In this document: piece after piece, positions 1-19,530 of the stretch
Position numbering within the stretch: position 1 is the first letter of the stretch
How the letters are laid out: each line of letters opens with the position of its first letter
Source: a virus
Reading direction: 5' to 3' (one strand)
Virus record (IMG/VR): IMGVR_UViG_3300032240_001705
Span: 1-25,990 of that record
DNA: 25,990 nucleotides
The notes under the pieces: generated by a model
Told to the model about the DNA's origin: nothing
Database searches by the model: none
Seen by the model: the letters and a program-made list of their open reading frames with translations, nothing else
Made by a program: the position numbers and the translations under genes

Positions 1-1083
1 GCTGTAAAAGTCGCCAGCAGTTCCTTGATAAAGACTAGATTGAATTGTTATTACTGCGCCGCTAACTGCTGTTATTTGACCTTCAAGATAAACAGTTCCC
101 CCACCAATTGCAGGGGCTATTGCGCGTGTACGTGCTCCAACAATATAAGGATGTGTTGTTTTATTTAATGTAAATACTTTATCGCCAAAACCCATTGAAA
201 CAGTTGAGTTAGAAACAATACCCTCGTAGCCTTGACCAGCTGCTCCTGTAGGACCAGTAGCACCTGTAGCTCCTGTAGGTCCAGTATCACCTTGAAGACC
301 AGAAACACCACGAGCACCAGTAGCTCCTGTAGCTCCAACAGGTCCTAATAAACCAGTTGGACCTGTTGGTCCAGTTGGGCCTGTGTCACCTTGTGAACCC
401 TGTGGTCCAACTTGTCCTTGATTACCGCGAGGTCCTGTAGGTCCCGAAGGTCCCGCACTTCCTGTTGCACCAGTAGGTCCTTCTAAGTTACCTACATTTT
501 TCCATGCAGATGTTGGTACATCCCAAATTACTAAACTACCGTCAGCAAGAAGATATGCTTGACCAGCAGTTCCAGTTGGATGCGCTGTTTGTAAAGCAGA
601 GAGTGTTGCGTACTCTCCAAGAATATTTAAACCTTGACCAGGAGAACCTGTTGGTCCTGTAGCGCCAGCAGTTCCAGAATAACCTTGTGGGCCAGTAGCA
701 CCAGTTGGGCCAGCAGTTCCTTGATTTCCCGAAGGACCTGTAGCACCTGTTCGTCCTGTAGGACCAGTAGCTCCTACTGCGCCCGCAGGTAGTGGGATAG
801 TTTCATATACCCAAGCATTTGAACTGCGGCGGTAAATTCGTATGTTTGCAGCGTCGCCAGTAATTTGTACAAACGCCCATTGATTAGCTGTAGGGGTTGG
901 GTATGCTGCTGTTAAATTAGCAAGAGTAGCGAAGGTGCCTAAAAATTGAGCAGGAAGTCCTTGAGAGCCAGTAGGGCCTGTAGGACCTGTAGGCCCTGTT
1001 GGTCCACCTAAAATGCCAGTAGGACCTGTAGCACCTGGGTACCAAGGACCATTATCTGGTGGAACAATTATAATATCTGCCAC
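1..1083 (-). CDS. Collagen-like tail fibre, C-terminus off the window
   Basis: Probable receptor-facing fibre. I read 361 codons from a GTG at 1083 with no stop before the left edge. Gly-X-Y triplets (mostly GPT, GAT, GPQ) occupy about residues 17-42, 101-150 and 202-285. Two related globular inserts separate them, at about 43-99 and 151-200. Each has a 'G-x-(Y/F)-A-T-L' opening and a Trp-containing close (AWVYET, AWKNVG). A third non-collagen segment starts near 286. Collagen triplets in phage fibres are known to form trimeric stalks. The GTG lies one base after the TAA of the upstream connector-like gene, so translation is probably coupled; the upstream GGTGGA is only a fair ribosome site. 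Receptor binding is inferred from the architecture. Confidence 0.85.
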
Positions 1084-11061: not shown

Positions 11062-11275
11062 TCTAAATTAGATTATCATCTATGTTGTCCAATATATATG
11101 CATCAAATAGGTAAATACGCGTAAATATGTACTTATATTAAATACCTAAATAGAGTATTTGTCTCAATATAAAAAATATATCTATTTAAACTTGACTGAC
11201 GCTGTAACGCTGTGGCAGTCTAGAACATGACCGAGGCGCCTTAGGGCGCCTTTGCCAACTGAGAGGAGCAATAAA
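11062..11275. promoter_or_regulatory. AT-rich divergent intergenic region
   Basis: Separates the minus-strand operon gene 10801-11061 from the plus-strand lysozyme gene and is far more AT-rich than its surroundings. It contains TAGGTA (11108-11113) and its complement TACCTA (11143-11148), the palindrome TACGCGTA (11116-11123) and two copies of GTAAATA (11111, 11121). TTGACT at 11192-11197 is a plausible -35 for the plus strand; TAGAAC at 11221 is a poor -10 at long spacing. For the minus strand, TTGAGA with TATTTA 17 bases later is a possible promoter near 11135-11165. Promoter function is inferred. Confidence 0.5.
11234..11251 (+). other. Leader hairpin of the plus-strand gene, possible attenuator
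   Basis: AGGCGCC (11234-11240), loop TTAG, GGCGCCT (11245-11251), then TT before G. The seven-base-pair GC stem ends nine bases before the GAGAGGAG ribosome site. It resembles a terminator with a short T tract, so it could end an upstream transcript or attenuate this gene. Confidence 0.55.
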
Positions 11276-11815
11276 ATGCTCAATATCAAAATCAACTTCA
11301 GTATTGACTTAAAGAAAGTAGGAGCAACATGGATGACAATGTTCTTAATGTTCTCTCACTTGATGCTTCCTCCAACTGCGGAGGCGCTAACTGTGCCTGC
11401 TCTTGCGGAGAAGCCAATAACAGTCAATCTGACGTACATGAAAGTGACAACAACAAAGTCACAAGCCAAGGAGGACTTGGCGAGTAACGGCTCGAAATAC
11501 TTCGACGCTGAAGCGCTTGCTTTTTTAACGGTCTACACAAAGGACTGGGAAATGAGCGAATGGACGTGTCTTCGTAACATATGGCAAAAAGAAAGCCATT
11601 TTAACCCTAAGGCTAAAAACAAGTCTTCAGGCGCTTACGGAATCGCACAGTTTATGCCAACGACCTGGGAAAATTACAAAGTAGTGAAAACCCCAGAGGC
11701 GAGATTGCAGATAAAATATGGGCTACGTTATATTGAAAAACGATACGGCAGTGCAAAGGACCCAAATGGGGCGTGTAACGCCTGGGCGTTCTGGCAAAGG
11801 AATAACTGGTATTAA
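11276..11815 (+). CDS. Secreted lytic transglycosylase/lysozyme-like protein
   Basis: 179 residues from ATG 11276, chosen because GAGAGGAG lies seven bases upstream; a TTG at 11252 has no such site. Residues 13-38 look like a signal peptide: KK, a hydrophobic Met/Phe/Leu core, then 'TAEALTVP' with cleavage likely after AEA. The catalytic domain covers about 90-179 and has the goose-lysozyme/SLT pattern: 'WQKESHFNP' with catalytic Glu106, 'GAYGIAQFMPTTW' (119-131), 'GLRYIEKRYG' (149-158) and 'AWAFWQRNNWY' at the end. C98 and C167 could form a disulphide. It should cut peptidoglycan glycan strands outside the cell membrane. It is the only plus-strand gene and is bounded by its own regulatory region and terminator, which suggests an acquired moron of host type. 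Confidence 0.88.
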   Translation: MLNIKINFSIDLKKVGATWMTMFLMFSHLMLPPTAEALTVPALAEKPITVNLTYMKVTTTKSQAKEDLASNGSKYFDAEALAFLTVYTKDWEMSEWTCLRNIWQKESHFNPKAKNKSSGAYGIAQFMPTTWENYKVVKTPEARLQIKYGLRYIEKRYGSAKDPNGACNAWAFWQRNNWY

Positions 11816-13227: not shown

Positions 13228-13949
13228 TTGTACTCAAACCCCTTTCTATATCCTTTTTTGTAATGAGCCATAGGAACGGTCTGTTTTTCAGCAGCTAAAT
13301 CTACCATCCCTTTAAAAAATTCAGGGGTGGAATCAATTTCGCTAACCCAACTTTCTCTTTTAATGGGTATTAAAGACATTATTGGGGTTCCTTTAGGTAT
13401 TACTCCTTCAAAATTATTTTTTATGTGAAAACTGACATTTCCTGGCATTGGATAAACATCAGCGTCCATGTACCCAGCCACAGTTGTAAATGGCAAATCA
13501 TATCTGTTTATTGGGTGCATCATCATTAGGCCGTAGCTATCAGGAGACTTAATACCCCAATGCATTTGCCATGAATAATGTGCGTCATAATGACCGTGTG
13601 GGGTTGGCATCTCAAAAGTGTGCCTAACCGATACAGGGTGAAGGTCGTGGTCCCAAGTAATTTCAGGAAGCCCATCCGCCTTTCTAAGCACGTATACATC
13701 TGTGTGTAACCTAAAATGATAACCAAAAGTCATAGCATCAAAATATGGCATGCAATGTTTTAAACCTAAATGTACGTTAGCTCTATCAGCAGTTTTTGAT
13801 TTAAACTTCTCTGCATCCCCAATGCCATGTCCCAAAGGAAGGTTTTTCCAATAATCAGCAACCTCACCCTTTGCTGAGTGTGGGGCTACAGTTTTATTAG
13901 CGGTCTCTTCACCATTCCATGGATAAAACCTAATTACTTGGTTTTCCAT
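13224..13949 (-). CDS. DUF6065-like phage protein
   Basis: 241 residues. The sequence follows the pattern of the phage family DUF6065: 'CMPYFDAMTFGYHFRLHTDV' near residues 66-85, 'HTFEMPTPHGH' near 110, 'SYGLMMMHPINRYDLPF' near 137, 'AGYMDADVYPMPGNVSF' near 158 and 'IPKGTPIMSLIPIKRESW' near 185. Conserved His, Asp and Arg residues hint at a jelly-roll or cupin-like fold, but no activity is established for the family. It overlaps the glycosyltransferase gene upstream by 20 bases and the next gene by four, so the three are translated together, suggesting a shared modification role. Confidence 0.8.
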   Translation of the reverse strand: MENQVIRFYPWNGEETANKTVAPHSAKGEVADYWKNLPLGHGIGDAEKFKSKTADRANVHLGLKHCMPYFDAMTFGYHFRLHTDVYVLRKADGLPEITWDHDLHPVSVRHTFEMPTPHGHYDAHYSWQMHWGIKSPDSYGLMMMHPINRYDLPFTTVAGYMDADVYPMPGNVSFHIKNNFEGVIPKGTPIMSLIPIKRESWVSEIDSTPEFFKGMVDLAAEKQTVPMAHYKKGYRKGFEYK

Positions 13950-15006
13950 TGATTTCCCTATCTAAATCCATCAGTCTTTTAGCAGTGGGATATCTATCAC
14001 CATTTTGCTCAGCAACTTTATACATGTCTTCATAGAATTTGTTATAGTCAATCCCAGAAACTTTTTCATACTCAGCTAATAGTTCTTTATTGGGGGCACC
14101 CCACACACCTGTTATTTTTCCAGTTAAAATGTCTTTATTCCTCAATAAACTAATTACTATTTTTTCTTCTATAGTTTTTCCATCTAACCCAACATTACTG
14201 TATACAGACCTCCAACTGTCAATAACGTCTCTGCCACGAACCATCATCTCTCTTGTCCAAAGTGGAGGATTTTTCATTGCAAAAATCCTATATCCTCTAG
14301 TCCAAGCTCTCATGGGAGTTGTATTTTCATCGTGGTATACAAGCTCTGGGTCATAAGGAACGTCTTCTACAAAACTTCCTAAAGTAAAATTAAAATGCCC
14401 AGAGGAAAGCCATTGTTCTTGATAAGGTTTTTTACTAAAATCTGCTGGTATTGGATAAGGGCTATTTATTGCCTCTACTCCATAAGTCCAATACATAAAC
14501 ATGTCTTCTTCATGACCCCGCCAAGGAGCTTGAGATTTTGCAACTAATGTCCAACCTTCATGGTCTGTAATTGTGTCAAAATCAGTCCGCATGTTCATAG
14601 TAGTTGCTTGACTTGTCTGACTATGCCTATGCCAATCAGGTAAATATTGAGAAATCATTGGCTTATCTACAATTTTAGAAAGCTCTTTATGATGCGCCTG
14701 TAATTTAACATCCCACATTGGAGTAAAAATAGTGTGAGCGTCAATTTGTAAATAATAATCTTGATTATCATACAAAGAAGCGGCAAGGTCTCTAGTTGGA
14801 CCAATGCCTATTGGGTCTGGGTCAGTAATATGTATAGTTTTTACATTAGGAAACATGCTTAAATCTGGAAAATCACCTTTAGGATACTGCATGCCAATGC
14901 CAATATGTATATCTCCAGGGCGCGACGCTTTACCAAGAGCGGTTTTTACAGTTTGAACTACATCTTCTTCGTTATAAGCAGGAATCCCTATAAATATTGT
15001 TCCCAT
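13930..15006 (-). CDS. GT60/GlcNAc-type glycosyltransferase
   Basis: 358 residues, ATG 15006 after TAGGAG. The fold is GT-A: 'IFIGIPAYNEE' (4-14) starts the nucleotide-binding domain, 'GIGPTRDLA' (67-75) is the family helix, and 'YYLQIDAH' (84-91) supplies a D-x-H metal site in place of DxD. 'SSGHFNFTLG' (201-210) and 'TTPMRAWTRGYRIFA' (229-243) match later family blocks. This is the pattern of the GlcNAc-transferase family (PF11397/CAZy GT60), which in eukaryotes modifies hydroxyproline of Skp1 and in viruses is assigned to protein or surface glycosylation. Here it follows a fibre-like gene, so virion-protein glycosylation is a reasonable inference; acceptor and sugar are unknown. Confidence 0.85.
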   Translation of the reverse strand: MGTIFIGIPAYNEEDVVQTVKTALGKASRPGDIHIGIGMQYPKGDFPDLSMFPNVKTIHITDPDPIGIGPTRDLAASLYDNQDYYLQIDAHTIFTPMWDVKLQAHHKELSKIVDKPMISQYLPDWHRHSQTSQATTMNMRTDFDTITDHEGWTLVAKSQAPWRGHEEDMFMYWTYGVEAINSPYPIPADFSKKPYQEQWLSSGHFNFTLGSFVEDVPYDPELVYHDENTTPMRAWTRGYRIFAMKNPPLWTREMMVRGRDVIDSWRSVYSNVGLDGKTIEEKIVISLLRNKDILTGKITGVWGAPNKELLAEYEKVSGIDYNKFYEDMYKVAEQNGDRYPTAKRLMDLDREINGKPSN

Positions 15007-15021
15007 TTGATGCTCCTATAA

Positions 15022-16935
15022 TTAGTATTTAAAGTTGTGAGTAATTATACCATCTGCTAGGAATAGGTCGTTAGCCTCTACGTCAATGTCTACTACAAGA
15101 GTTTGACTAAGGAAAGGCTCTTTAGAGGTAATAGTGATTTCAACACCATCTTCTCTCTTTAGCTTGTCTCCAACAACAATTTCCTCTACGCGAGCAAATT
15201 GCCAAACTCCATTTTTTGATACAAATAGGAAATGGTCCCAAGTAATTTTCATAGTGCCATTTAGCTTGTAATAAGACTCTTCAACAACGTGGCGAACCGC
15301 TACAACTGTTGTTTCTTGGTAAGTAATGCCATCAGCGTTATCCAAAGACCAAACATTGCCTGGATACCATTTGCTGTTATCTTCTCCATTTGGATATGTA
15401 GGGATGACTGGAGCTTTTAATTGGTCACCCTTTACAATATCTTCAATTGGCTTAGTTGTTCCATCAGACATAGTAACCATAGTTCCATAAGCCCAACACC
15501 CACCACCACGTGCAGCGTAATAAGCTGTAATTGGAGCTGCGTAATAAGCTACTACAGGAGGCTTTGCATAGTAAGCTGTTGTAACTGGAGCTGCGTAATA
15601 AGGTACTACAGGAGGCTTTGCATAATAGGATTGGGTAACTGGAGCTGTGTAGACAGGGACATACACAGGGCCAGAAAAAGTGGGGGTCGTACTAACACAT
15701 TGACAATAACCATTAACTATTGTCCAATTTCCAAGACAAGGGCCGTAACAAGTAGGCGCTGAATAGGTTGGGGTGTAAGTAATTGGACAACAAGTAGTGC
15801 TATATCCTAAATCAGACGTTGAACAAACAGGTGTGCAGCCCGATGATGTGGTTCCTGTGGCAACCCCATCTGTATAGACCGTTCTTTCACTATCGTAACA
15901 CATTGTACTAGTCGCGTTACATCCACTACATCCAGTTGTTATGGTTTGGTTAGATTTAACAGTAGCCGCAGTGCAAGGACCGTAAGTGATGACTGGGGTG
16001 CTACCGCCGCCACTATAAGTAGGGACGTCACTTGTTACAATATTAGCAAATCCAGAAGCTGCGTAATACCCACTTCTTTCAGCCAATACTACAATTCCGT
16101 AATTGGTTAGGGCTGTGAGTCCTGATAAAGATATTGTGCTACCAGATAGAGAACCAGGGGTGGACAACAAAGTGTATGTATTATTACCGTCATAGTTAGT
16201 AATAACTGCAGTAATAGAGTTTGAACCAATACTAGTAGCAGAAATTGTAGGAGCAGCAAGAGTTGATTGGCTTCCACCGCCATAGTATGTTGGCACATAA
16301 ACAGGGGCAGTCGCATTACTTGGGGCAACAGTTCCTGAAGTAGTAGAGGCTATTCCAGTTCCGTTTGCGTTTTTAGCAGCTACAGTAAAGTTATAGCCAG
16401 TTCCAACAGTAAGGCCAGAAAAAGTGTATGAGGTAGAAGAGTTGCCAGTATCAACAACTGCACCAACATTTGGGGTAATAATATACCCAGTTATAGGAGA
16501 ACCACCATTAGAAGGAGCAACCCAAGAAAGTGTTATACCGCCACTTGTTTGAAGGTCAGTTCCTCCAACAGAAGTTACACGTCCTGGAACGGTAGAGACT
16601 GTAGTATTTCCGCCAGTGTAATCGTCTGAGCTATATACTAAGTTTCTAGCTTTAATTTTATATGTGTACTTTAAACCAGATTTAAGACCAGTAAGAACAG
16701 TAGAAGTTAATGTATTAATTGTTTTAGTTATAATTCCGCCAAGTTCATCAGTAGCGGTAATTGTGTAATCAAGGATAGGCAGTTTGCCATCAAATGTAGT
16801 ATCTTGAAACGTTAAAAATGTAGCACCGTCATCAAAAGAACGACCAGAACCAGAGTCTGACTGAGATACGATAGTCGGAGGTAGTGGAGGAGCTTTCTTT
16901 TGAGAGTCGCTAATTCCTACAAATACATATGCCAT
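15022..16935 (-). CDS. Fibronectin-III fibre protein with C-terminal Hint domain
   Basis: 637 residues, ATG 16935 overlapping the previous TAA. Order: FnIII-like 17-117 and 118-205 ('LSWVAPSNGGSPITGYIIT'), a third beta module 226-305, a segment with 12 cysteines at 321-413, tandem Tyr/Pro repeats 426-473, and a Hint domain at 480-634. The Hint domain has Cys480 opening 'CWAYGTMVTMSDG', a block-B 'TWDH' (T565, H568), and ends in 'DGIITHN' with Asn634. All catalytic positions of intein/hedgehog chemistry are present. Only Phe-Lys-Tyr follows Asn634, with no Cys/Ser/Thr at +1, so splicing is unlikely and self-cleavage or attachment through Cys480 is more likely. It is probably a surface or tail fibre protein. 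Confidence 0.85.
   Translation of the reverse strand: MAYVFVGISDSQKKAPPLPPTIVSQSDSGSGRSFDDGATFLTFQDTTFDGKLPILDYTITATDELGGIITKTINTLTSTVLTGLKSGLKYTYKIKARNLVYSSDDYTGGNTTVSTVPGRVTSVGGTDLQTSGGITLSWVAPSNGGSPITGYIITPNVGAVVDTGNSSTSYTFSGLTVGTGYNFTVAAKNANGTGIASTTSGTVAPSNATAPVYVPTYYGGGSQSTLAAPTISATSIGSNSITAVITNYDGNNTYTLLSTPGSLSGSTISLSGLTALTNYGIVVLAERSGYYAASGFANIVTSDVPTYSGGGSTPVITYGPCTAATVKSNQTITTGCSGCNATSTMCYDSERTVYTDGVATGTTSSGCTPVCSTSDLGYSTTCCPITYTPTYSAPTCYGPCLGNWTIVNGYCQCVSTTPTFSGPVYVPVYTAPVTQSYYAKPPVVPYYAAPVTTAYYAKPPVVAYYAAPITAYYAARGGGCWAYGTMVTMSDGTTKPIEDIVKGDQLKAPVIPTYPNGEDNSKWYPGNVWSLDNADGITYQETTVVAVRHVVEESYYKLNGTMKITWDHFLFVSKNGVWQFARVEEIVVGDKLKREDGVEITITSKEPFLSQTLVVDIDVEANDLFLADGIITHNFKY
15499..15660 (-). 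repeat. 54-base tandem repeat before the Hint domain
   Basis: The segment GGAGCTG recurs at 15533, 15587 and 15641 with an exact 54-base period. It encodes 18-residue units of the form YYAKPPVVxYYAAPVT, about three copies with a truncated last one. It forms the linker right before Hint Cys480. Confidence 0.85.
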
Positions 16936-18696: not shown

Positions 18697-18784
18697 GTTC
18701 TGCCCACCACATTCCAAGGGCAGTAATAACGACTAGCGTTACTATAAATGTCCCTTGGAACGTAAAGTGGGTCAGAAAGTACAT
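18689..18784 (-). CDS. 31-residue single-pass membrane micro-protein after endolysin
   Basis: ATG 18784 overlaps the endolysin stop (TAATG). The peptide MYFLTHFTFQGT leads into a hydrophobic stretch with 'FIVTLVVITALGMWW' and ends AERG, one clean transmembrane span (about residues 9-27). The location directly after the endolysin suggests a lysis accessory such as a holin regulator or small pinholin-like protein; that is inference. Confidence 0.65.
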   Translation of the reverse strand: MYFLTHFTFQGTFIVTLVVITALGMWWAERG

Positions 18785-19530
18785 TAAATAAGCTCCATTA
18801 GTGCTGCCCAGGTCTTTGGGCCTACAACACCATTTGAATCTAGGTTGGCGTGGTTATCTTGGAATGCTATTACCTTTGCCTTTGTAGCTGGGCCGTAATC
18901 GCCATCTTCTACAAGAGTCAACGCGTGTTGAATAGCTTTCACAGCTTCTCCTTTATCGCCAGGTTTAACCTGTCCTGGAAATGCTGGCTTAAGTGTAGGA
19001 ACAACTTCTGCTGTTACTTCGTTACCTTTGTAATTAGGGCGTCCAAAGCCTTCGATGAACACAGGGATACCCTTAGCATTCTTCTTGTAAGCGCGAATTT
19101 TCTTTACAGCTTCTCCGCCGTTTGCCTGTGAACCAGACTTCTTCTTGTCACCAGAGGTGTTTCCCTCCATGGTTGTAACAGTTCCATCTCCATTGTCCTT
19201 AACAACAATACCAACGTGCTCAATAGGAGCGCCGCCTGCCATGAAATCAAAGTAAACAATATCGCCAGGTTCTGGCTTTGCTACTGCTGCATCTGTCCAA
19301 GTGCCAAGCTTCTTAAAAGCTGCAGCTCCTGCCATTGTTGAAACGGTGTTAGGAATCTTTACGCCCGCCTGATTTGCAACCCACATGCAGAAACTTCCGC
19401 ACCATGGGAGAAAGTTAGCCTTTGTAAAAGCGCCATACTTAGTTTCGTTGTCCTTAGGACCTTCTACGTAGCCTTCTTCTTTGAGAGCAGTCTCTACCAT
19501 CAAAGCGGCTGTTCCTTTAGCTGCTGCCAT
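18784..19530 (-). CDS. Endolysin: CHAP plus peptidoglycan-binding domain
   Basis: 248 residues, ATG 19530 with AAGGAG seven bases upstream. The N-terminal CHAP amidase/endopeptidase domain covers about 5-165: Cys44 in 'PWCGSFCMW' is the nucleophile, His105 in 'IEHVGIV' the base, and 'MEGN' (121-124) the third position. 'PGDIVYFDF' (88-96) is the family beta strand. Residues 186-247 form a PG_binding_1 repeat domain ('PGDKGEAVKAIQHAL', 'DGDYGPATKAKVIAFQ', 'GVVGPKTWAAL'). There is no signal peptide, so release depends on a holin. Two membrane protein genes precede it in the same operon. Confidence 0.95.
   Translation of the reverse strand: MAAAKGTAALMVETALKEEGYVEGPKDNETKYGAFTKANFLPWCGSFCMWVANQAGVKIPNTVSTMAGAAAFKKLGTWTDAAVAKPEPGDIVYFDFMAGGAPIEHVGIVVKDNGDGTVTTMEGNTSGDKKKSGSQANGGEAVKKIRAYKKNAKGIPVFIEGFGRPNYKGNEVTAEVVPTLKPAFPGQVKPGDKGEAVKAIQHALTLVEDGDYGPATKAKVIAFQDNHANLDSNGVVGPKTWAALMELI

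What the first reader, a model, noticed from the sequence alone, without database searches (positions are those of the whole stretch)
15022..15498. Intact-looking Hint domain at the end of a phage fibre protein
Cys480, TWDH and the terminal HN are all present, but only three residues follow Asn634 and none is a splicing nucleophile. The domain would be predicted to cleave itself off or to transfer the upstream protein onto a nucleophile, as hedgehog does. It would be a self-processing fibre whose mature end is the Tyr/Pro repeat.
Basis: partly seen in the sequence, partly recalled or inferred. Interest (0 to 1): 0.65.

Follow-up and report, generated by a model that had tools for sequence, protein, structure and literature searches.

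The report
Self-cleaving Hint module on phage fibres
A fibre protein of a freshwater phage ends in an intact-looking intein-like (Hint) domain of a phage-specific family whose catalytic residues have been kept across very divergent phages, so these fibres probably process their own tips after they are made, although nobody has yet tested this.

Summary
The 637-aa fibre (15022-16935, minus strand) ends in a complete Hint fold from Cys480 to Asn634, followed only by Phe-Lys-Tyr. AlphaFold models it at pLDDT 91.9. Its best structural matches are bacterial intein-like (BIL) domains (Z 19.6 and 18.2), ahead of hedgehog (16.8).

It is not a one-off. IMG/VR and isolate phages carry a well-supported phage Hint clade, including one Bacteroidota prophage. 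It is always C-terminal, sits on several unrelated fibre N-termini, and has a 1-20 residue tail. Across 17 representatives at about 30% mean identity, Cys1, a Trp, the block-B His and the terminal His-Asn are invariant. The +1 residue is free and never Cys or Ser. Close orthologues in the same gene slot end in a short Cys-rich tip instead, so the Hint is a swappable module.

Best reading: an A-type-BIL-like self-processing tip. It should make a thioester at Cys480 and cleave there, with Asn634 cyclisation releasing FKY. Splicing is excluded in practice. Hedgehog-like transfer to a nucleophile is possible but unsupported. Activity, virion fate and purpose are untested.

The parts
15022..16935 (-). 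637-aa fibre-like protein with C-terminal Hint domain
   Evidence: ORF and translation; N-terminus orthologous to other phage fibre-like proteins
16321..16878 (-). SQKK N-terminus and two fibronectin type III domains (about residues 20-205)
   Evidence: Pfam fn3 6.1e-18, two stretches; 62% identical to Hint-less siblings L003/L008
15508..15663 (-). Tyr/Pro repeat stalk (YYAKPPV/YYAAPVT), then RGGG
   Evidence: Tandem Repeats Finder: period 54, 2.3 copies at 15526-15651; translation
15025..15498 (-). Hint domain plus 3-residue tail (residues 480-637)
15496..15498 (-). Cys480, predicted N-S acyl-shift nucleophile (block A, Hint position 1)
   Evidence: invariant in 17 of 17 representatives; synonymous codons TGT/TGC both used
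15349..15351 (-). Trp529 (Hint position 50), family-specific invariant residue
   Evidence: 17 of 17 in the phage clade; only 2 of 13 alignable cellular Hints
15232..15243 (-). Block B TWDH (Thr565, His568)
   Evidence: His 17/17, Thr 16/17
15067..15069 (-). Block F Asp623 (Hint position 144), where most cellular Hints have His
   Evidence: Asp 16/17 in the phage clade versus His 60/83 in cellular Hints
15034..15039 (-). Terminal His633-Asn634 (block G)
   Evidence: 17/17 invariant
15025..15033 (-). Phe-Lys-Tyr tail, no Cys/Ser/Thr nucleophile
   Evidence: +1 residue variable in relatives

Best explanation
The last 158 residues are an autoprocessing domain of the A-type bacterial intein-like kind, from a phage-specific clade. 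It serves as a swappable C-terminal module of receptor-binding-type fibres. Predicted mechanism: (1) block B Thr/His help an N-to-S acyl shift at Gly479-Cys480, giving a thioester; (2) with no +1 nucleophile, no branched intermediate can form and the thioester is resolved by water or by an outside nucleophile, which frees the fibre chain 1-479 ending in the Tyr/Pro stalk plus GGG; (3) His633-Asn634 cyclise and release the FKY tail, independently or afterwards. Shown here: the fold (as a confident model), an intact and conserved catalytic set, purifying selection, C-terminal position, module swapping and phage specificity. Inferred from known BIL and intein chemistry: that it reacts, the order of steps, and net cleavage. 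Inferred and weak: why. The options I rank are maturation or uncapping of the fibre end (as S74-type chaperone domains do), then covalent transfer of the fibre end to a nucleophile.
For: Fold: AlphaFold pLDDT 91.9. Best PDB matches are Tetrahymena BUBL1 BIL2 (6y75, Z 19.6, 1.5 A over 133) and C. thermocellum BIL (2lwy, Z 18.2), with hedgehog 1at0 at Z 16.8. Profile vs PDB: BIL 2lwy at 2.7e-10. Conservation: 17 representatives below 70% identity (mean 30%) keep Cys1, Trp50, His89, His154 and Asn155 without exception and Thr86 in 16 of 17; position +1 has nine different residues. Cys, Thr, His and Asn codons vary synonymously; dN 0.06-0.33 vs dS 1.4-2.3. Architecture: always C-terminal, tails of 1-20 residues, on SQKK-fn3, VNGVWK-PASTA, collagen-like and other N-termini. 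Orthologues in the same slot lack it. Clade: the 22 phage rows plus a Bacteroidota prophage row are one branch (100/97) apart from the other cellular Hints. Mechanism precedent: A-type BILs have terminal His-Asn, lack the +1 nucleophile and mainly cleave (PMC4031507, PMC7664689, PMC7765530).
Against: No experiment: cleavage, virion content and function are unknown. A copy with changed catalytic residues exists (L019: Val-Tyr-Asn end, SxxH, Cys displaced by two), as does a stand-alone NCTB copy without Cys1, so the fold can persist without the full set. The block-F residue is Asp instead of the usual His, which may slow or alter Asn cyclisation. Cys1 conservation is partly helped by the way domains were cut for the alignment.
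Confidence: 0.68

Rival explanations
1. The Hint makes a thioester at the fibre end that is passed to an outside nucleophile (an amine or hydroxyl on the virion, another fibre, or the host surface), so the fibre end becomes covalently attached, as hedgehog is attached to cholesterol.
For: Cys1 and the block-B residues are invariant while +1 is free. The residue before Cys is usually Gly, often GGG, as at a transferable end. The Hint occupies the place of the receptor-facing tip. The nearest fold is the Tetrahymena BIL of the BUBL1 locus. Trp50 and block-F Asp are clade-specific and could serve a nucleophile.
Against: No recognition domain follows the Hint, unlike hedgehog. His-Asn is retained, which pure transfer would not need. 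No acceptor is known. Some members have Tyr or Gln rather than Gly before Cys.
Confidence: 0.17
2. The Hint is a non-catalytic structural or receptor-binding tip that stays on the fibre.
For: It takes the position of other tips, and a few copies have lost catalytic residues.
Against: The invariant columns are almost exactly the catalytic ones, in a domain otherwise about 30% identical; a binding tip should diversify on its surface and need not keep them.
Confidence: 0.12
3. A vestigial intein that lost its C-extein.
For: Intein fold and motifs; no +1 nucleophile.
Against: One phage clade, always C-terminal, on unrelated N-termini, under purifying selection. No homing endonuclease, and sibling fibres show no C-extein beyond the site.
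Confidence: 0.03

Closest known systems
A-type bacterial intein-like (BIL) domains, e.g. C. thermocellum BIL 2lwy and Tetrahymena BUBL1 BIL2 6y75/6tmm
   Same: Hint fold, Cys1, block-B TxxH, terminal His-Asn, no required +1 nucleophile, about 140-160 aa, in variable regions of non-conserved proteins
   Different: Phage-specific clade on fibre C-termini; an invariant Trp and block-F Asp where both solved BILs have His; only a 1-20 residue tail
Hedgehog autoprocessing (Hog-Hint) domain, 1at0
   Same: C-terminal Hint on a secreted or surface protein; thioester expected at Cys1 after Gly
   Different: Terminal His-Asn retained, no sterol-recognition region, lower structural similarity (Z 16.8 vs 19.6)
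Class 1 inteins (gp41-1, RecA, DnaB)
   Same: Fold, blocks A, B and G
   Different: No +1 nucleophile, no real C-extein, not in a conserved enzyme gene
Peptidase_S74 / intramolecular chaperone domain of phage tailspikes
   Same: C-terminal module at the end of phage fibres that removes itself; an S74 fibre sits right beside a Hint protein in the Rufibacter prophage
   Different: Unrelated fold and chemistry; chaperone role not shown for Hint
PHROG 38766 'virion structural protein' (Erwinia/Yersinia/Salmonella phages) and phage NCTB Hint proteins
   Same: Same Hint clade, C-terminal, catalytic residues kept
   Different: Collagen-like or Ig-like N-terminal parts; database labels only, no function described in the papers found

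Membership tests
A-type BIL domain | Hint fold | tested here: met
   pLDDT 91.9 model; Z 19.6 to 6y75 and 18.2 to 2lwy
A-type BIL domain | N-terminal Cys/Ser nucleophile | tested here: met
   Cys480; 17/17 in the clade
A-type BIL domain | Terminal His-Asn | tested here: met
   His633-Asn634; 17/17
A-type BIL domain | No +1 Cys/Ser/Thr nucleophile | tested here: met
   Phe635 here; clade F, A, T, I, K, M, V, Y, G, with 3 of 17 Thr and no Cys or Ser
A-type BIL domain | Located in variable regions of non-conserved proteins | tested here: met
   variable fibre C-termini; orthologues carry other tips
A-type BIL domain | Phylogenetic grouping with reference BILs | not tested
   reference BIL sequences were not in the tree
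A-type BIL domain | Autocatalytic N- and C-cleavage | not testable with these tools
   needs protein expression
Class 1 intein | +1 Cys/Ser/Thr and C-extein to ligate | tested here: not met
   HN-FKY-stop
Class 1 intein | Block F His | tested here: not met
   Asp at position 144
Hedgehog Hog-Hint | Sterol-recognition region after the Hint | tested here: not met
   only three residues follow Asn634
Hedgehog Hog-Hint | N-S acyl shift at Cys followed by transfer to a lipid or other nucleophile | not testable with these tools
   needs biochemistry
Phage virion Hint clade (this work) | Groups with phage Hints apart from cellular Hints | tested here: met
   22 phage rows plus one prophage row, support 100/97

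The most novel reading that the evidence does not exclude
The phage uses Hint chemistry to end its fibres in a reactive thioester that is transferred to a nucleophile on the host surface, so adsorption becomes covalent: a hedgehog-like acyl transfer used as viral glue.
Probability: 0.1. Interest if true: 0.92.

Novelty: new variant of a known kind. Interest (0 to 1): 0.6.

Why it matters
Removal of a C-terminal domain from phage fibres is known from S74-type chaperone domains. A conserved phage clade of intein-like domains in the same position would be a second, chemically different route, with a reactive thioester intermediate at the very end of the fibre. It also gives BIL domains, whose biological role is still unclear, a concrete setting in which their chemistry can be tested on purified proteins and virions. 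It would change how fibre ends, and so receptor-binding tips, are predicted from such genes.

Tried and rejected

A co-occurring partner was looked for: the downstream glycosyltransferase and phrog_7084 gene sit beside Hint and Hint-less fibres alike, so they are not tied to the Hint.

The vestigial-intein and trans-splicing ideas were rejected: both halves of the domain are present and relatives are always C-terminal.

Nearest cultured relatives by TerL (Streptomyces phages LuckySocke, BRock and others, 55%) gave no Hint match at E 0.01.

Literature searches found no description of C-terminal Hint domains on phage fibres; the papers concern inteins in terminase, helicase or nucleotide enzymes (PMC3556154, PMC5259590, PMC6293099). 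The library is open-access only, so prior work may exist.

Full report
What is there. The window is a 25,990-base virus record with terminase, portal and major head protein genes on the minus strand. The nearest cultured relatives by terminase are Streptomyces phages at 55% identity, so an actinobacterial host is likely but unproven. ORF 15022-16935 (minus) encodes 637 residues: a short N-terminus with SQKK, two fn3 domains, a Cys-rich stretch, a Tyr/Pro repeat, RGGG, and then a 158-residue C-terminal piece from Cys480.

The domain is a Hint domain. Family models see it weakly (Pfam Intein_splicing 1.8e-5, below cut-off; TIGR01443 above cut-off when the domain is scanned alone). A profile of its relatives finds a BIL domain in the PDB at 2.7e-10. 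AlphaFold gives pLDDT 91.9, and structural comparison gives Tetrahymena BIL2 Z 19.6 (1.5 A over 133 residues), C. thermocellum BIL Z 18.2, mini-inteins mostly Z 15-18 and hedgehog Z 16.8. The structural alignment runs from Cys1 through the C-terminus, so both splicing halves are present.

It belongs to a phage clade. Relatives were found in IMG/VR contigs and in isolate phages: NCTB with three Hint genes close together and Erwinia, Dickeya, Salmonella and Yersinia phages, where PHROG 38766 is labelled virion structural. A maximum-likelihood tree places 22 phage rows and one Rufibacter row on one branch (100/97), apart from the other cellular Hints. The Rufibacter copy lies in a prophage tail module between an S74 fibre and a holin. 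Deep order inside the clade is unresolved, the Rufibacter row is a long branch, and BIL reference sequences were not in the tree.

The catalytic set is kept. Among 17 representatives below 70% identity (mean 30%), the five invariant positions are Cys1, Trp50, His89, His154 and Asn155; Thr86 is 16 of 17. Four of these five are the residues expected for Hint catalysis. Cys, Thr, His and Asn codons vary synonymously, and dN is far below dS in five pairs, so this is selection, not recent copying. By contrast +1 is F, A, T, I, K, M, V, Y or G, and the tails run from a single Lys to 20 residues. Caveat: domains were cut at the model start, which helps the Cys1 count. L019 (SxxH, Val-Tyr-Asn) and a stand-alone NCTB gene lack parts of the set.

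Two clade marks stand out. Trp50 is invariant in the phage clade but rare at that place in cellular Hints (2 of 13 alignable). Block F has Asp where 60 of 83 cellular Hints, and both solved BILs, have His. What they do is unknown; they may tune Asn cyclisation or the choice of nucleophile.

It is a swappable tip. Of 71 distinct SQKK-type fibres with complete ends, 12 end in the Hint; the rest end in Cys-rich CRDFRGRC tips, FFPPFFP repeats, Gly-rich tips or other ends. Siblings L003, L008, L118 and L119 share the fn3 part and the PTCxGPCxGxWxIVxGxCxC motif with the window, then carry a short Pro-rich run and the Cys-rich tip instead of Tyr/Pro repeats plus Hint, in the same gene neighbourhood. 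Conversely, L069 has a 63% identical Hint and a similar Tyr/Pro repeat on an unrelated N-terminus. The stalk before the Hint differs widely (YYAPP, PPYVPPP, VIIATP, SPVGV, FFPPFFP), so the Hint is not matched to one repeat.

How it probably works. Published BIL chemistry: type A BILs have His-Asn, form the N-terminal thioester, cyclise Asn and mainly cleave, because the +1 nucleophile is missing (PMC4031507, PMC7664689, PMC7765530; read). Applied here, Cys480 should form a thioester with Gly479 that water or another nucleophile resolves, and Asn634 should release FKY. The mature fibre would end in ...YYAARGGG. A BIL-style ligation of FKY to Gly479 is chemically possible but would change little. 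I put net cleavage at Cys480 at about two in three. The purpose is open: uncapping or maturation of the fibre end, as S74 domains do, is the conservative choice; covalent transfer is the exciting one and has no direct support.

The prediction of self-processing stands and is strengthened by the comparative data.

Novelty. A Hint in a phage structural protein is already in databases under automatic names ('Hint domain containing protein', 'Fibronectin type III', 'PASTA' of uncultured Caudovirales; PHROG 38766). I found no paper that describes the pattern, within an open-access library. I rate it a new variant of a known kind.

Noticed in passing
window 13930-15006 (minus): Glycosyltransferase of PF11397 (4.4e-27), to my knowledge the family named after the Skp1 hydroxyproline GlcNAc-transferase, directly downstream of a Pro/Tyr-rich fibre; it could modify the fibre repeats. 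Found beside Hint and Hint-less fibres alike.
   Followed up: partly
L052 2954-3937: A Hint copy whose middle is replaced by a near-copy of the protein's own N-terminal IKENGSWRIAAKRVPN stretch: recombination or assembly error.
   Followed up: no
L239 3438-7403 (Nanoarchaeota MAG): Four tandem Hint domains in one apparently secreted protein, each ending in His-Asn-Lys and followed almost at once by the next Cys.
   Followed up: no
L002 1-6480 (phage NCTB): Three Hint-bearing genes within 6.5 kb in a tail-fibre cluster; the middle one is a stand-alone Hint without Cys1.
   Followed up: partly
L139-L143, L154, L180, L184, L188, L136: Fibres ending in long FFPPFFPFFPP repeats (or, in L136, carrying them before the Hint), an unusual aromatic/proline stalk.
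   Followed up: no
L003, L008, L114-L119, L125: A short conserved Cys-rich fibre tip, C-x-CRDFRGRC, in Hint-less siblings.
   Followed up: no
L019 1346-2371: A degenerate Hint (SxxH, Val-Tyr-Asn end, Cys displaced) on a VIIAEPP-repeat fibre: a natural inactive control.
   Followed up: no
window 11252-11815 (plus): A lone opposite-strand ORF that reads like a secreted SLT-type lysozyme, amid a minus-strand structural region; a CHAP plus peptidoglycan-binding endolysin lies at 18784-19530.
   Followed up: no
window 1-1083 (minus): Collagen-like GPTG-repeat protein running off the window end.
   Followed up: no
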